Part shown: positions 32,503 to 38,600 of the stretch, in pieces
Numbering within the stretch: the stretch's first letter is position 1
How the letters are laid out: each line of letters begins with the position of its first letter
Origin: Enorma massiliensis phI
GTDB lineage: Bacteria > Actinomycetota > Coriobacteriia > Coriobacteriales > Coriobacteriaceae
DNA: 64,000 bases
Reading direction: 5' to 3'
NCBI RefSeq assembly: GCF_000311845.1
Contig: NZ_HE978575.1
Location: forward strand, 84,715 to 148,714
Translations under genes and position numbers: made by a program
The notes under the pieces: generated by a model
What the model was told of the DNA's origin: nothing
Databases searched by the model: none
Seen by the model: the letters and a program-made list of their open reading frames with translations, nothing else

Positions 32503-33228
32503 ATGAAGCGCGCGTACCTTATGGAAATGACGATTTTCCGCGATTACATCAAGCAGCTCATGGGCGTTGGCTTTTTCGTCTCGATATTCGTTTCGGCGGG
32601 CATGGGTTCGATCGTGGCCGCGCCGGCGATTCTCACCACGATGTTCTTCATGATGGGCTGCATGTCGGCGAGCGCTTACGACGAGCAGAGCAACTGGGGC
32701 GCCTTCCGGCTGACCATGCCGGTGAGCCGCCGCGATGTGGTGCTCGGCCGCTACGGCGTCATCGTGACGCTCGGGTTCCTGGGCATGGCGGCGGGCTGGG
32801 CTGCCTGCCTGCTCATCCTGGCTTTGGGGAGTGCCGTTGAGCTTCCGTTCGGCCTTTCGGATGCCATCGCGTTTGACGAGGGCATGTTCCTGGGAGCGGT
32901 TTTCTCTACCGCGTTTTGCATGGCGCTCGGCTCGCTCATCGCATCGATCGAGACGCCCATCTACTTCAAGTTCGGACAGAACAAGACCACGCAATGGCTG
33001 CCCATGATCACCGTGCTGCTCTTCGTGGGGCCCATGCTCATCATCAACGGCACCGGCATCTTGGACAACGGATCGATGAGCTTCGGCAACCTCGCCTCGC
33101 TTCTGGGGTTCATCGAGACGCCCGTTGGCGTGGCGACGTGCTTTGCGATCTTCCTCGCGTTCACGGTCGTGGTGCTTGGTATCTCTGCCGCCGTCTCGCT
33201 CAAGCTCTACGAAGGGCGCGAGCTGTAG
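32503..33228 (+). CDS. ABC-2 type permease
   Basis: A 241-residue protein with six predicted membrane helices, including VGFFVSIFVSAGMGSIVAAPAI, YGVIVTLGFLGMAAGWAACLLILAL and VATCFAIFLAFTVVVLGISAAVSL. The DEQSNWGAFRLTMPVSRRDVVLGRY loop is characteristic of ABC-2 permeases paired with YtrB-like ATPases. It begins immediately after the ATPase stop. Its 3' end overlaps the 3' end of the convergent LuxR-type gene by 22 bp. Confidence 0.9.
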   Translation: MKRAYLMEMTIFRDYIKQLMGVGFFVSIFVSAGMGSIVAAPAILTTMFFMMGCMSASAYDEQSNWGAFRLTMPVSRRDVVLGRYGVIVTLGFLGMAAGWAACLLILALGSAVELPFGLSDAIAFDEGMFLGAVFSTAFCMALGSLIASIETPIYFKFGQNKTTQWLPMITVLLFVGPMLIINGTGILDNGSMSFGNLASLLGFIETPVGVATCFAIFLAFTVVVLGISAAVSLKLYEGREL

Positions 33229-35513
33229 GCGCGAGCATCCTCGCTCTCAGAATTCTCCTTTTCCGCTTGCACAAGAAGGACCGCAGCTGCCTGCATCAGT
33301 TCTTTTCGCGAATGGATCCCAAGCTTTTTGTAGGCGTGCTGTAGATGGGTTCGGACGGTATGCACGCTGATCCCCAAGATCTCTGCAATATGGTTCGTAG
33401 TGTATCCGTGCAACGCCTGCATGACCACTTCCCGCTCTCGGCACGTTAACTCGTTTTCAAGAGTCGAACGCCACGTTTGCTGCGAGGGACAGTCGGCGTT
33501 ATGCCCGGCGTCTCGGCCGGCGGCTCGCCCCAGCGCGTTCGAGCATTCTTCAGGATGGTTCGGCTTGCAGGTAATTGCATCGAGGAAAACTGAGGCGGAG
33601 ACGCCCAGCATGACGAATTGGACGGGAATGCCGATGTGCCTCAGCAGAGCGTAGGAAAAGAGCGTTACGGCAACGAAGACGATTCTTTTTCTATGCACGT
33701 TTGTGATGAATATCCTGAATGCAAAGGAGAGGGCAACGATTAGGCATCCGTCGAGAGCGAGGTGCGCGCTATTGAGGAGCGCGAATGCAGCCGATCGGGA
33801 GGGATCATACTGCTGAGCGGCAAGCAAGTCCGCCGTATGGCGAGAGAGCCCGAGCATAAGGACTACGAGGAACATAAACACGGGTATTGCCAGTGTTAAG
33901 GAGCGCCGCCCTTTTCGCGGTTCTGGAAATAGGGGCACGCCGCATGCATACGTCAGAGCAAGCGAAATGGCGATCTTCCAAGCAAGGGGCCACGTTGAAG
34001 CGAGTACAGCGGAAAATGCCGAGCATAGAATGTCTGCAGCTACATACAAAAGGACCAGCAGCGTTAATCCTGCAGCAACGCCAGAAGACCGTTGGAGCTT
34101 TGCGGCGGTAAGAAGCATCATAGGTTGTTTGGCTTTTCCCGTTGTCGCTTTTGCCGTGTGATCGCATGTGAATTTGGCATCTGCATAGAGCTCGAGGAAC
34201 ATGTCTTTTGAGGAGACTCCAAGCTTGCGATATAGGCGAGCCGCGTATGTCGACACGGCAGATTTAGAGATTCTAAGGCGCTGCGCTATGTCTGAGAACG
34301 CTTTGCCGCAAATCAGCTGTTGCGCTACGTTCAACTCCTGTTGGGATAGGCCGTGAGACTTTAGAAGCATGCTGACCGCCGAAGCATTCGCTTCACTGTC
34401 TGGTGAAGCGCTCGGTTTGCTTATCAAAAAGGAGCTGTGCTTAATGAGTCGAGAGCGTGAAGCGATGATGGCGCATGCTCCGGCGCAAGCTACGAGTCCA
34501 AGCTGGAGCAAGCCGAAGTATGGGTCATTGATTGGGGCCGCCGCAGCGTTGTGGAACAGTCTTATGGCGAGCGCGGTAAGTAGAAGCGGCATGAACTGAG
34601 CTTTGTCAGAGATGAGATTGCGGCCGTTTTTGCTATCGCTGGAATTGTTGCGAGCTTGAGAGCCATCGCAAGCATGGCGCGATGGCGAGACCAAAAAGAA
34701 AATGGAAAGAAAGCCGATGATGAGCCCGAGTTCGGGAATGCTGTATCCCAATGCGGCTTGAACGAGGGCAAGCAGGAGGAAAAAGAGCGGGGTTGCCGTT
34801 TCCCCTGCCTTTGCGCGCAGGGCACGGGAGATGCTTGAGGTGATGAGTGCAAGCAGCAGACACGTAGAAAACGCGACGTCGCTGTACTCCTTGGTGTGGG
34901 AAAGTGAAATAGAGGGTACGAAGCTTGAAGTGTTCGAACAGAGAGCACATGCAAGGCCGAGCGACAGGAACTCAAAGAGACGCGCTGAGTCAATGGGCCC
35001 AGGTATGCATGTTCGCGCGTCGCGATGAGGCTGCGCTGAATGCTGGCTGAGAAGAAGGACGATTGCGCCGCCCATAAGCAGGGCTTGTGGAGCGATTGCA
35101 TAGAGCGTGAAAGCTGCAAGCCCGGGGATGATTCGCACCCGTTGAGGTTCCCATCGGCGGCATAGGGCAAGAACCGCGAGCAGCAGGGAAAGGGGCGGTG
35201 CTAGATGCATGATTGATGCCGAACAGACGAGCATGAGGGTGTATGGGTGCTTCAAAGGGCAAGGAAGGGCAAGTTTGCTTCGCATGCTGTTCAACATGCT
35301 CTGCGCCCTGTGTGCGCGCAGGACAAAGAGCAAAAGAACGGCTGCAATCGCTCCAATGAGAGCATAGGGTCCATGCAGTGACCCTATGCTCTCGCTAAAT
35401 GGGGGCAGTATGCACCGAACAATATGAAACGACCAGGTCGTAACTGCATATGGTGCAAGGCGGTGAAGTACGCGCTTTGACGTCCTTCGGTATGTGCCGG
35501 CGACGTATTCCAT
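33207..35513 (-). CDS. Membrane LuxR-family regulator with two membrane blocks and two HTH domains
   Basis: A 768-residue protein. Membrane helices fill residues about 45-355, followed by a LuxR helix-turn-helix at about 387-443 (LSQQELNVAQQLICGKAFSD, then IAQRLRISKSAVSTYAARLY). A second, shorter membrane block spans about 475-645, and a second LuxR HTH at about 688-745 carries the canonical LTCREREVVMQALHGYTTNHIAEILGISVHTVRTH. Single-block versions (membrane sensor plus C-terminal HTH) are common in Coriobacteriia; two in one chain is unusual. The second HTH matches the consensus better. GGATTG-type spacing places it 18 bp after the small membrane-protein gene, in one operon. Confidence 0.88.
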   Translation of the reverse strand: MEYVAGTYRRTSKRVLHRLAPYAVTTWSFHIVRCILPPFSESIGSLHGPYALIGAIAAVLLLFVLRAHRAQSMLNSMRSKLALPCPLKHPYTLMLVCSASIMHLAPPLSLLLAVLALCRRWEPQRVRIIPGLAAFTLYAIAPQALLMGGAIVLLLSQHSAQPHRDARTCIPGPIDSARLFEFLSLGLACALCSNTSSFVPSISLSHTKEYSDVAFSTCLLLALITSSISRALRAKAGETATPLFFLLLALVQAALGYSIPELGLIIGFLSIFFLVSPSRHACDGSQARNNSSDSKNGRNLISDKAQFMPLLLTALAIRLFHNAAAAPINDPYFGLLQLGLVACAGACAIIASRSRLIKHSSFLISKPSASPDSEANASAVSMLLKSHGLSQQELNVAQQLICGKAFSDIAQRLRISKSAVSTYAARLYRKLGVSSKDMFLELYADAKFTCDHTAKATTGKAKQPMMLLTAAKLQRSSGVAAGLTLLVLLYVAADILCSAFSAVLASTWPLAWKIAISLALTYACGVPLFPEPRKGRRSLTLAIPVFMFLVVLMLGLSRHTADLLAAQQYDPSRSAAFALLNSAHLALDGCLIVALSFAFRIFITNVHRKRIVFVAVTLFSYALLRHIGIPVQFVMLGVSASVFLDAITCKPNHPEECSNALGRAAGRDAGHNADCPSQQTWRSTLENELTCREREVVMQALHGYTTNHIAEILGISVHTVRTHLQHAYKKLGIHSRKELMQAAAVLLVQAEKENSESEDARAYSSRPS

Positions 35514-35531
35514 GTTGTCCCGGCTTAGATG

Positions 35532-35687
35532 TCAATCGCGCTCCGTTTGGTCTTGGGAGGTGCGCAAAGCGTCTCTCACCGCCTTGCGGATGACGAGGTA
35601 GAGAAGTGCGAGCATGATGAGGCGGGGCATAAACCAATACAGTAATCCTAGAAGTATCCCAGTAAGCTGTGTGATTGTTGGCAACAT
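35532..35687 (-). CDS. Small membrane protein, 51 residues
   Basis: The frame starts at ATG 35687 after a clear GGGGAG and ends at TGA 35532. It encodes a hydrophobic N-terminal 35 residues (LTGILLGLLYWFMPRLIML, then ALLYLVI) and a charged C-tail ending SQDQTERD. It lies 55 bp after the Tat-signal gene and 18 bp before the LuxR-type gene, all on the minus strand. No family is recognised. Evidence for reality is the ribosome-binding site, operon spacing and membrane-like composition. Confidence 0.65.
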   Translation of the reverse strand: MLPTITQLTGILLGLLYWFMPRLIMLALLYLVIRKAVRDALRTSQDQTERD

Positions 35688-35742
35688 GGCGTTCTCCCCA
35701 TCATACAATGCCGACTGCTTTCATCGTCGAGCGTTCAGTTTG

Positions 35743-36300
35743 CTATGAGACGGGACCTCCGTTCATCCAGCCGCTTCCATTACTGTAAAACTCTGCGTAG
35801 AAGTGACAGGCAGTCGCAATTTGCGTAAGAGGCTTGATCTGACAAGAGTAGCTAACGCACAGCGTCTGCCCCTGATCGAGCTTGGTGTAGCTATAGGTAA
35901 GGTTCGATACTGATCCGGGATTCGCTTGAATCCAGGCATTTTGAACAGTCGTAATGTTATTTCCTGATGTGTTATATGTGGCGACGGCGTCGACCTGTGT
36001 TGGAGCGAGCTTGATGACGCATGACATTGTTGCGACGCCAGTCTTGAGCGCTCGGGTGAGCGCCTGAGGACCTGGTATCAGGTTTTCATGCACCTCGGCT
36101 CCTTCTTGTTTCGCCTTCCTGACTGCTTCTTCCCAAAGCGCTTTTGCTTGCTCGCCCTTGCTGGTGTCGTTCGACACATTAGCAGAAGCCATTGTCTGAG
36201 CATTTGCGATGCTGGGGAAGGCCGCAATAAATGTTGCGGAAGCAAGGGAGGCCAAGAATCCGCGACGGCTTATGTTGGCCCGTTGATTCGACTGGTCCAT
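35743..36300 (-). CDS. Tat-exported protein of unknown function
   Basis: A 185-residue protein beginning at Met 36300, with GAGGAGATAACC before it. It has a twin-arginine signal (NISRRGFLASLASATFIAAF) with probable cleavage after ANA. The mature part begins with a charged helix (KGEQAKALWEEAVRKAKQEG) followed by a beta-rich region with three cysteines in its second half (CVSYSCQIKPL, ACHFYAEF). The ending NGSGWMNGGPVS is glycine-rich. I do not recognise a family. As first gene of the operon with the small membrane protein and the LuxR-type receptor, it may present or sense the ligand for that receptor; this is inference. Confidence 0.75.
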   Translation of the reverse strand: MDQSNQRANISRRGFLASLASATFIAAFPSIANAQTMASANVSNDTSKGEQAKALWEEAVRKAKQEGAEVHENLIPGPQALTRALKTGVATMSCVIKLAPTQVDAVATYNTSGNNITTVQNAWIQANPGSVSNLTYSYTKLDQGQTLCVSYSCQIKPLTQIATACHFYAEFYSNGSGWMNGGPVS

Positions 36301-36398: not shown

Positions 36399-36421
36399 AT
36401 ATTGCGTGAATGGGGCAATAT
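36399..36421. promoter_or_regulatory. Candidate operator upstream of the Tat/LuxR operon
   Basis: ATATTGC (36399-36405) and GCAATAT (36415-36421) form an inverted repeat about 100 bp before the first gene of the operon; nearby minus-strand TTGCCC could be a -35. Otherwise the 36301-36665 gap shows no convincing gene. Confidence 0.35.
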
Positions 36422-36665: not shown

Positions 36666-36722
36666 TTGAAGTCCTCAGTTTGGTCTTTCTCGGCTGAAAA
36701 TGTACCAAATTGAGGACTTTAA
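36666..36722. repeat. Left bracketing hairpin of nuclease-like gene 1
   Basis: TTGAAGTCCTCAGTTTGGT (36666-36684) pairs with 36704-36722 (17 of 19 positions) around a 19-base loop. It ends 21 bp before the ATG of the gene it precedes. A related hairpin lies beyond the gene's stop. Confidence 0.8.
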
Positions 36723-36743: not shown

Positions 36744-37865
36744 ATGTCGCGTGCGGTTGATCAAGAGCTGGCCCGTCTGTTTTCCGCCGCCGAAGATTCC
36801 GGAACCTGCCTGTACGTTACCGAGCGTTGCCTTCGCAAATCGCTTGAGCGGAGGATGCGCGACGGGAGCGCCGTGTGCCCGCATCGGTCTTTGTACGCCC
36901 GCGCGCCGTATTGGCACGCGTTGCGTCCCGACGACCAAGCGCTGCATATCATACGAGGCCTCCAGCAGGCTCATCCCTCATGGGTGTTCTGCGCTCAGTC
37001 CGCAGGGCTGGTATGGGGCCTACCCATTTCGTATCGCAACCTCACGCCGATCCATGTCATTACCGGATCGCATCGGCAGCCCGCAGGCCAGTCAATCACG
37101 GCCCACGCGTTGCGCGACGAATCCATCCAGATGGTCCGCGGTGTGCGGGTGACGACGCTTCCGCGCACGGTGTTCGATTGCCTGCGCGCTGCTACCTTTG
37201 TCGACGGGCTTGCCATAGCCGACCGGTCGCTACGCATGTATGCCCCGGAACAGCGTCGCGAGTTTCGTGGCGAGCTCAAGCGCCTGTCGTACAGGCGCAA
37301 GGGAGGGCGGCGTGCCGTCGGAATCATGGGATATGCGGATGCGCGCAGCGAGAGCTGGGCGGAATCTGCGGCTCGTGCACTCATCATCATGCAGGGCTTT
37401 GCGTTGCCGAAGTTACAGGCGCCGTTTGACCAGCCGTTCAGTCCCGGACATGTCTATTACGTCGACATGCTCTTTACGCGCTCAGATGGCAGCAAAGTGA
37501 TTGGTGAGGTGGATGGCAACGAGAAGTATTGGAACCCGTCGATGCTCGCGGGACGTTCCACCGCGCGCGTGCTCGCGGACGAGCAGCACCGCGAATCCGA
37601 GCTCACGATGTATGGCATGCCGCTGATGAGGATATCGGTCGATGACATCGTGCATCCCCAGCAGTTCTATAGGAAGCTCAAGGCGTATGGTATTCCGCAA
37701 AGCGATGCAGCTGCTGAGAAGGTGCGGAGACTGGCGAAATCCGCTCCGGGGAGCGCGCTGTTCTTTGCATCGATGCCCCTGCCGAGACCGAAAGAGCTGA
37801 AGCTCATGTTGCAGAAGGCCGGGCTGGAAGAAGGTCAAGTGGGGGAGGGCGAGGTGTCTGATTGA
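36744..37865 (+). CDS. PD-(D/E)XK nuclease-like protein (DUF559/AbiEi-like), hairpin-bracketed copy 1
   Basis: A 373-residue protein. Residues about 1-165 resemble the N-terminal part of AbiEi-type antitoxins and similar proteins (LYVTERCLRKSLERRMRDG, then a beta-rich HVITGSHRQP and LPRTVFDCLRAA). Residues about 200-310 look like a DUF559/Vsr-type restriction fold: E207 in SESWAESAARALI, D241 in YYVDMLF, and E255-V-D257 in VIGEVDGNEKYW, then LTMYGMPLMRISVDDI. The start at 36744 follows ACGGAGG. It is bracketed by hairpins at 36666-36722 and 37899-37962. The protein at 40.4 kb has the same domain order. Function unknown; a nuclease or an antitoxin-like regulator are both possible. Confidence 0.8.
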   Translation: MSRAVDQELARLFSAAEDSGTCLYVTERCLRKSLERRMRDGSAVCPHRSLYARAPYWHALRPDDQALHIIRGLQQAHPSWVFCAQSAGLVWGLPISYRNLTPIHVITGSHRQPAGQSITAHALRDESIQMVRGVRVTTLPRTVFDCLRAATFVDGLAIADRSLRMYAPEQRREFRGELKRLSYRRKGGRRAVGIMGYADARSESWAESAARALIIMQGFALPKLQAPFDQPFSPGHVYYVDMLFTRSDGSKVIGEVDGNEKYWNPSMLAGRSTARVLADEQHRESELTMYGMPLMRISVDDIVHPQQFYRKLKAYGIPQSDAAAEKVRRLAKSAPGSALFFASMPLPRPKELKLMLQKAGLEEGQVGEGEVSD

Positions 37866-37898: not shown

Positions 37899-37962
37899 CG
37901 TTGAAGCCCTCATTTTTGTATGCTTATGCCTCAAAAATGGACCAGAATGAGGACTTCAACGC
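37899..37962. repeat. Right bracketing hairpin of nuclease-like gene 1
   Basis: ACGTTGAAGCCCTCATTTTTG (starting 37899) pairs imperfectly with ACCAGAATGAGGACTTCAACG (37941-37961). The stem ends (TTGAAGYCCTCA) are the same as in the hairpin left of the gene. It starts 34 bp after the stop. Confidence 0.8.
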
Positions 37963-38075
37963 TAAAGGGGGCGTGGAAGATGCGGGCGAATGGCCTACAT
38001 GGCAACCCGCTCATCGTATGTCGCGCCATAATGGGTACAAAGGATGAGGTTATAGGAACGAAGACGGGAGCAAGC

Positions 38076-38600
38076 ATGAGGTGTCTTATTGTGGTGAGTA
38101 GCGCGGGCGGAAATACCCGCATGGTGGCGGAGCATCTGGAGCGCGAGCTGCGCAGCGCTGGATGCGAGGTGCCCGGTGTCGCGGATGTCGCCGCGGTGAG
38201 TGAAGACGAGACCCGTGCTGCCGACGTGGTGCTTGCAGGCTTTTGGACCGATAAGGGCGATTGCGCCCCCGAGATGGCGACGTTTTTGGAGCGTTTGTCC
38301 GGCAAGCGCGTGTTCCTGTTCGGCACGGCGGGGTTCGGGGGCAGCCCCGAATATTTCGAGCGCATCCTGGGTAACGTGCAAAAGCACCTCCCTGCCGATG
38401 CGGAAATCCTTGGTACGGCGATGTGCCAGGGGAAGATGGGCGCTGGCGTGCGCAAGCGCTACGAGGCGATGCTTGCCGAGAATCCCGGCGACGCCCGCAT
38501 CCAGGCGATGATCGACAACTTCGACGCGGCGCTCGCACATCCGACCGAGGAGGATGTCGCGCGAATCACGGCTGCTGCTCAGCGCGCACTCGGCGTGTGA
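38076..38600 (+). CDS. Flavodoxin-family protein
   Basis: A 174-residue protein with a flavodoxin-like start (MRCLIVVSSAGGNTRMVAEHLERELRSAG), in which SSAGGNT takes the phosphate-binding loop position. VVLAGFWTDKGDCAPEMATFLERL and VFLFGTAGFGGSPEYFERIL form the next flavin-contact loops. It probably binds FMN and transfers electrons or reduces small molecules. The start at 38076 has GGGAG six bases upstream. The adjacent downstream gene encodes a ferredoxin-like DUF362 protein, though a repeat and 239 bp separate them. Confidence 0.85.
   Translation: MRCLIVVSSAGGNTRMVAEHLERELRSAGCEVPGVADVAAVSEDETRAADVVLAGFWTDKGDCAPEMATFLERLSGKRVFLFGTAGFGGSPEYFERILGNVQKHLPADAEILGTAMCQGKMGAGVRKRYEAMLAENPGDARIQAMIDNFDAALAHPTEEDVARITAAAQRALGV

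What the first reader, a model, noticed from the sequence alone, without database searches (positions are those of the whole stretch)
33207..36300. Putative three-part signalling unit: Tat-exported protein, 51-residue membrane protein, membrane LuxR
The genes are tightly spaced on one strand with good ribosome-binding sites. An exported protein with conserved-looking cysteines, a tiny membrane protein and a multi-span regulator could form a ligand-binding, coupling and output chain. ATATTGC/GCAATAT upstream may be the autoregulatory site.
Basis: inference. Interest (0 to 1): 0.55.

Follow-up and report, generated by a model that had tools for sequence, protein, structure and literature searches.

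The report
Exported protein, membrane partner, tandem regulator
A gut-type bacterium carries a small extra block of three genes: an exported protein, a tiny membrane protein that accompanies it in related species, and an unusual membrane-embedded gene switch with two DNA-binding parts, which together look like an inducible surface-protein cassette.

Summary
The three genes are real: Tat-type exported protein (185 aa), 51-aa single-TM protein and a 768-aa polytopic regulator, adjacent on the minus strand. The first two form a conserved pair: in 12 of 12 strong loci across Coriobacteriia the Tat gene is followed at once by a 41-64-aa membrane protein gene, against 1 of 385 control genes. The third gene is not co-conserved. 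A different LuxR-type regulator adjoins the pair in one other genus (6 loci), a two-component system in one locus, and no LuxR was found in four. One family relative has a related small gene overlapping a tandem LuxR gene, without the Tat gene. The regulator is TM-HTH-TM-HTH, a tandem variant of the known 10-12-TM LuxR family. The block is accessory and low in GC. The cysteines are not conserved and the inverted repeat is not above chance. The mature Tat domain is confidently predicted (helix plus beta domain) without a clear known fold. Best reading: a regulator controlling an exported-protein/membrane-partner pair.

The parts
35743..36300 (-). Gene for a twin-arginine (Tat) exported protein, 185 aa
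   Evidence: RR invariant in 12 of 12 homologues; TatC gene present in own genome
35746..36165 (-). Mature domain of the exported protein: N-terminal helix plus antiparallel beta domain
   Evidence: AlphaFold2 pLDDT 91.9, pTM 0.86 with 4 sequences
35532..35687 (-). Gene for the 51-aa single-TM protein, remote DUF6019-like family
33207..35513 (-). Gene for the tandem polytopic LuxR-type regulator, 768 aa (TM-HTH-TM-HTH)
34179..34358 (-). First GerE/LuxR HTH domain of the regulator (residues 386-445)
33282..33455 (-). Second GerE/LuxR HTH domain of the regulator (residues 687-744)
36399..36421 (.).

Best explanation
The three genes are an accessory, probably co-transcribed cassette. A membrane-embedded one-component regulator with two membrane domains and two LuxR-type DNA-binding domains (P0003) senses a cue at or in the membrane and controls expression of its own operon. 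The operon delivers a folded beta-domain protein through the Tat pathway and, always with it, a small single-span membrane protein that anchors, assists or protects against the exported protein. The Tat protein plus the small protein is the conserved working unit (output). The regulator is an exchangeable control part: tandem TM-LuxR here, a single-TM LuxR-type protein in genus g65, a two-component system in G298. Shown here: gene arrangement, conservation of the pair, RR motif, tandem HTH architecture, accessory insertion. Inferred: co-transcription, sensing, autoregulation, physical partnership of exported and small protein, and their final role at the cell surface.
For: Pair conserved 12 of 12 against 1 of 385 control genes. 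RR invariant in 12 of 12 and TatC in 16 of 16 genomes tested. LuxR-type gene directly adjacent on the same strand in 7 of 12 loci, and the only LuxR-type hit of the 16-18-kb stretch in each; two-component system on the same strand in 1 of 12. Different regulator types around the pair. Other tandem TM-LuxR genes lie next to or close to ABC-transporter genes (L053 and L054 in the own genome, L062, L064, L067) and, in two G029 loci, next to exported-protein genes (L039, L067), so control of export or envelope functions fits the class. The block is absent between permease and flavodoxin genes in G001, G003, G004 and G008 and is the lowest-GC part of the window, 0.52-0.55 against 0.624.
Against: No LuxR-type gene was found near the pair in 4 of 12 loci (G017, G261, G317, G280) nor in G298, which has a two-component system, so the control link is not general. 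No expression data. The operator candidate is not significant. The small-protein family also occurs alone in many Coriobacteriia, so it need not work with a Tat protein. In G027 it sits with a tandem LuxR and no Tat protein, which fits a role with the regulator equally well. If the weak match G029 is counted as a homologue, the pair rule is 12 of 13.
Confidence: 0.5

Rival explanations
1. One reading: the Tat-exported protein binds an external ligand, the small membrane protein couples it, and the membrane LuxR is the output, as a three-part signalling unit.
For: Gene order Tat-small-LuxR with 55 and 18 bp gaps. A regulator of some type adjoins the pair in three lineages. In G027 a related small membrane gene overlaps the start of a tandem TM-LuxR gene by 11 bp, which ties small protein and regulator together.
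Against: Four loci keep the Tat+small pair with no LuxR-type gene found. The regulator types differ outside the HTH. P0003 has its own large membrane domains, and in the related 10-12-TM LuxR family DadR, HcdR and CadR were the activators needed for substrate response (PMC9734109, found passages and section 13 read); no exported binding partner was mentioned in what I read. The cysteines proposed as functional are not conserved.
Confidence: 0.2
2. Secreted antibacterial protein with small membrane immunity protein (bacteriocin-like), under an inducible regulator.
For: Patchy presence (1 of 5 genomes of the genus; 11 of 396 Coriobacteriia with strong matches), high divergence, low GC and site absence in relatives, exported protein always with a single-TM partner in the strong loci. 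In G017 a radical SAM/SPASM peptide-maturase-like gene lies upstream.
Against: No bacteriocin family passes a curated cut-off; Bacteriocin_IId only at E=0.053 as the best of 4 of 12 members. No dedicated transporter in the operon. Tat export of a folded beta domain is unusual for a bacteriocin (general knowledge).
Confidence: 0.15
3. A genomic island of loosely associated genes: the LuxR only happens to lie behind the Tat+small pair.
For: No second genome with the same three-gene order was found: P0003 has no full-length match in 147 other genomes. The neighbouring AbiEi-like gene in the same insert looks like another cassette with its own flanking palindromes.
Against: All three genes share strand, tight spacing and low GC (0.52-0.55), while the AbiEi-like gene is 0.61. 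A regulator adjoins the pair in three separate lineages, and a small gene adjoins a tandem LuxR in G027.
Confidence: 0.15

Closest known systems
10-12-TM LuxR-type regulators of Coriobacteriia (DadR, HcdR, CadR; Dong et al. 2022, PMC9734109)
   Same: Membrane-embedded one-component regulator with C-terminal GerE HTH; same bacterial class; membrane part diverges quickly while HTH domains stay alike.
   Different: P0003 has two HTH domains and two membrane domains (9 hydrophobic segments before HTH1, 6 between). It lies behind exported-protein genes instead of beside molybdenum or flavin enzymes. Tandem forms are not mentioned in the parts of the paper that I read.
DUF6019 (PF19483)
   Same: Small single-TM proteins; three relatives of P0002 match it at E=0.00034, 0.0018 and 0.011, one more at 0.23, of ten scanned.
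   Different: All matches are below the curated cut-off and P0002 itself does not match. Function unknown; no paper in the searched library names DUF6019.
Lmo2686 (Zea) of Listeria, PDB 4k15
   Same: Best Foldseek match of the mature domain (E=0.009), a small secreted protein (PMC6907008, passages); its operon is induced by cell-wall antibiotics (PMC6686043, passages).
   Different: TM-score about 0.25 and VIA Z 4.3: too weak to claim the same fold; a lead only.

Membership tests
10-12-TM LuxR family (Dong 2022) | GerE (PF00196) HTH at the C-terminus | tested here: met
   residues 688-742; two GerE stretches in all, E=9.7e-27
10-12-TM LuxR family (Dong 2022) | one N-terminal 10-12-helix domain followed by a single HTH | tested here: not met
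   two HTH domains, 9 hydrophobic segments before the first and 6 between (simple hydropathy count, not a topology program)
10-12-TM LuxR family (Dong 2022) | substrate-dependent activation of the neighbouring gene | not testable with these tools
   needs expression data
Tat substrates | twin-arginine signal followed by a hydrophobic stretch | tested here: met
   RR invariant in 12 of 12; the Pfam TAT_signal model matched only 1 of 12, at E=0.03
Tat substrates | host encodes TatC | tested here: met
   16 of 16 genomes tested
Tat substrates | export depends on TatC | not testable with these tools
   experiment needed
DUF6019 (PF19483) | score above the curated cut-off of 23.6 bits | tested here: not met
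   P0002 no match; relatives 21.0, 18.7, 16.2 and 12.0 bits
TatA/B/E (PF02416) | match to the family model above cut-off | tested here: not met
   one of ten relatives at E=4.6; P0002 none
Known bacteriocin families in Pfam/NCBIfam | match above cut-off | tested here: not met

The most novel reading that the evidence does not exclude
A portable surface-sensing cassette of Coriobacteriia in which a Tat-exported beta-domain protein and a dedicated single-span membrane protein act together with exchangeable membrane-bound LuxR-type regulators; in the window the regulator is a tandem molecule whose two membrane sensors and two DNA-binding domains sit in one chain, so that one polypeptide could bind both half-sites of an operator, or integrate two signals, without leaving the membrane.
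Probability: 0.22. Interest if true: 0.65.

Novelty: new variant of a known kind. Interest (0 to 1): 0.42.

Why it matters
The membrane LuxR family is a major sensing system of gut Coriobacteriia (PMC9734109), and how the membrane part reaches the DNA-binding part is open. Tandem TM-HTH-TM-HTH members would give a covalent two-headed version on which that question can be tested. The Tat+small pair is a consistent two-gene unit with no Pfam or NCBIfam model over cut-off, so it makes a concrete target for finding what these bacteria export under control of such regulators.

Tried and rejected
Cysteines as conserved functional residues: rejected by the alignment of 12 homologues. Inverted repeat as operator: exact pattern unique in the genome, but a repeat of this kind is expected by chance, and no half-site occurs in the 15-kb stretches around the other two tandem LuxR genes of this genome.

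Small protein as a TatA-like component: the N-terminal G-x-G-x-P-E-L of some members recalls TatA (recalled, not tested by alignment), but Pfam TatA_B_E gave only E=4.6 in 1 of 10. Rejected.

Fold assignment: the full-length model was poor (pLDDT 38) and was not searched. The mature-domain model is good, but no match reaches E<=0.001 in PDB or BFVD and the best VIA Z is 5.3. No fold name is claimed. Sequence search of solved structures gave nothing convincing.

Search outside the class: 0 of 325 other genomes of a phylum sample matched at E<=1e-4; that sample held some Coriobacteriia, and none of the known positives other than the own genome is among the rows listed. Viral contigs: none. Weak matches G014 and G066 cover only the signal region and were dropped before counting; G029 (E=0.0015, covering most of the length) was also dropped and has no small TM gene behind it.

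The PASTA-like stretch of the g65 regulator scores below cut-off (E=0.0064 in L033; not listed up to 0.01 for L036 and L037) and is called PASTA-like only. Papers: DUF6019/DUF5626 none; LuxR with 'two HTH domains' and transmembrane helices none; LuxR with Coriobacteriia, transmembrane and Collinsella none; twin-arginine with Coriobacteriia and small membrane protein none.
Full report
WHAT IS THERE. On the minus strand of the window lie three genes in the order Tat protein (35743-36300, 185 aa), small protein (35532-35687, 51 aa), regulator (33207-35513, 768 aa), with gaps of 55 and 18 bp. Shine-Dalgarno-like stretches precede the first two starts; the one before the regulator is weaker. The regulator has two GerE/LuxR HTH domains, at residues 386-445 and 687-744, with 9 hydrophobic segments before the first and 6 between the two (hydropathy count only).

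THE PAIR. A two-row profile of the Tat protein matched 14 of 396 Coriobacteriia genomes at E<=0.01, with 15 matches. Twelve matches in 11 genomes (own included) are strong (E<=2e-15); three weak ones (G029, G014, G066) were set aside. In 12 of 12 the next gene on the same strand begins 3-34 bp after the stop, by the most upstream start that fits, and encodes a 41-64-aa protein with one strong hydrophobic stretch (in the window the 51-aa start used here lies 55 bp away). The same test on 385 control genes of 150 aa or more, from the stretches of over 10 kb fetched by then plus the window, gave 1 (L040-L042, duplicates of other loci, left out). G029 counted as a homologue would make it 12 of 13. 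The twin arginines are invariant in 12 of 12, the cysteines are not. All 16 genomes tested encode TatC. In genus g65, dN is below dS in 6 of 6 comparisons for the small gene (0.10-0.19 against 0.17-0.34, 40-42 codons) and clearly so for the Tat gene. The small proteins are related among themselves only loosely: those of g65 and G298 lack most of the Y-x-V-x-R-K-A-V signature of the others. Relatives of the signature type are near DUF6019 but under its cut-off, and occur alone in many genomes. Two further loci (G013, G017) have such a small gene behind a different, 477-aa Tat-type lipoprotein.

THE REGULATOR. P0003 has no full-length match at E<=1e-15 in 147 other genomes. LuxR-type HTH genes adjoin the pair on the same strand in 7 of 12 loci: the window and six loci of genus g65, where the regulator is a different 240-252-aa protein with one HTH, one membrane span and a PASTA-like end, upstream of the Tat gene. 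In G298 a two-component system lies upstream on the same strand, with a lipoprotein and a second Tat-type protein between. In G017, G261, G317 and G280 no LuxR-type HTH was found in the 16-kb stretch; other regulator types were not searched there systematically. In G027 a related small gene overlaps a tandem TM-LuxR gene by 11 bp and no Tat gene is present. The own genome has three tandem proteins, which account for six of its ten GerE matches; the other two tandem genes directly follow ABC-transporter ATPase genes. With those from other genomes of the family, 11 tandem proteins were examined; apart from two closer pairs (L053/L064 at 51% and L065/L066 at 92% identity) they align mainly in and around the HTH domains. 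These 11 were picked partly from a truncated list by frame length, so no frequency is claimed; two of the long frames picked (L060, L061) turned out to have one HTH by my small HMM and no membrane segments in the longest frame.

ACCESSORY CHARACTER. The permease of the GntR-ABC-permease operon next door is widespread in the family: 34 of 60 genomes matched it at E<=1e-20. In G001, G003, G004 (same genus) and G008 (same family) the permease is followed closely by the flavodoxin gene that in the window lies at 37980-38600; in G009 no flavodoxin match was found in the stretch, and in G002 the contig ends. So the three genes and the AbiEi-like gene 36744-37865 are extra in the own genome. The three genes are the lowest-GC part of the window (LuxR 0.548, small 0.519, Tat 0.523, window 0.624); the AbiEi-like gene is not (0.612). 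The five relatives' Tat+small units measured (L028-L031, L033) are likewise 9-15 points below their loci.

STRUCTURE. The mature exported protein is predicted with high confidence from four sequences (pLDDT 91.9, pTM 0.86; mean pLDDT of the five models ranged from 45.8 to 91.9), as a helix followed by eight strands. No solved or viral structure matches clearly: best Foldseek E=0.009 (4k15, Lmo2686), best VIA Z 5.3 (3kny), then latexin 4.9. What the domain binds or does is open.

LITERATURE. Dong et al. 2022 (PMC9734109; abstract, found passages and section 13 read) describe 10-12-TM LuxRs of Coriobacteriia, with one C-terminal HTH, as substrate-dependent activators of neighbouring enzyme genes. 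The tandem type and its exported-protein context are not mentioned in what I read. PMC6686043 and PMC6907008 were read only in passages on lmo2686.

NAMES. 

VERDICT. Observation partly confirmed; interpretation partly supported. The strongest result is the conserved pair of exported protein and small membrane protein; the second is the tandem membrane LuxR, a variant of a known family. A shared signalling function is plausible but not shown; control of an exported pair by a membrane regulator is the simpler reading.

Noticed in passing
window 36744-37865 (+), flanks 36666-36722 and 37901-37959: A 373-aa gene, weakly AbiEi-like (PADLOC E=1.5e-4), is flanked on both sides by similar 57-59-bp imperfect palindromes (TTGAAG.CCTCA ... 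TGAGGACTT.AA) and is absent at this site in relatives: it looks like a separate cassette.
   Followed up: partly
L053 (own genome C2:573000-588000), L054 (C1:914000-929000): Two more tandem TM-HTH-TM-HTH LuxR proteins in this genome, each directly behind ABC-transporter genes, like a one-component counterpart of transporter-sensor modules.
   Followed up: partly
L028 9116-10396 (G017): A radical SAM/SPASM protein, peptide-maturase-like, lies directly upstream of the Tat+small pair.
   Followed up: no
L039 and L067 (G029): Tandem TM-LuxR genes beside small exported-protein genes without Pfam family over cut-off; L067 also has ABC-transporter genes.
   Followed up: no
L010, L011, L074 (G013, G017): A 477-aa Tat-type lipoprotein gene is followed by a DUF6019-like small membrane protein gene: a second exported-protein family with such a partner.
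   Followed up: no
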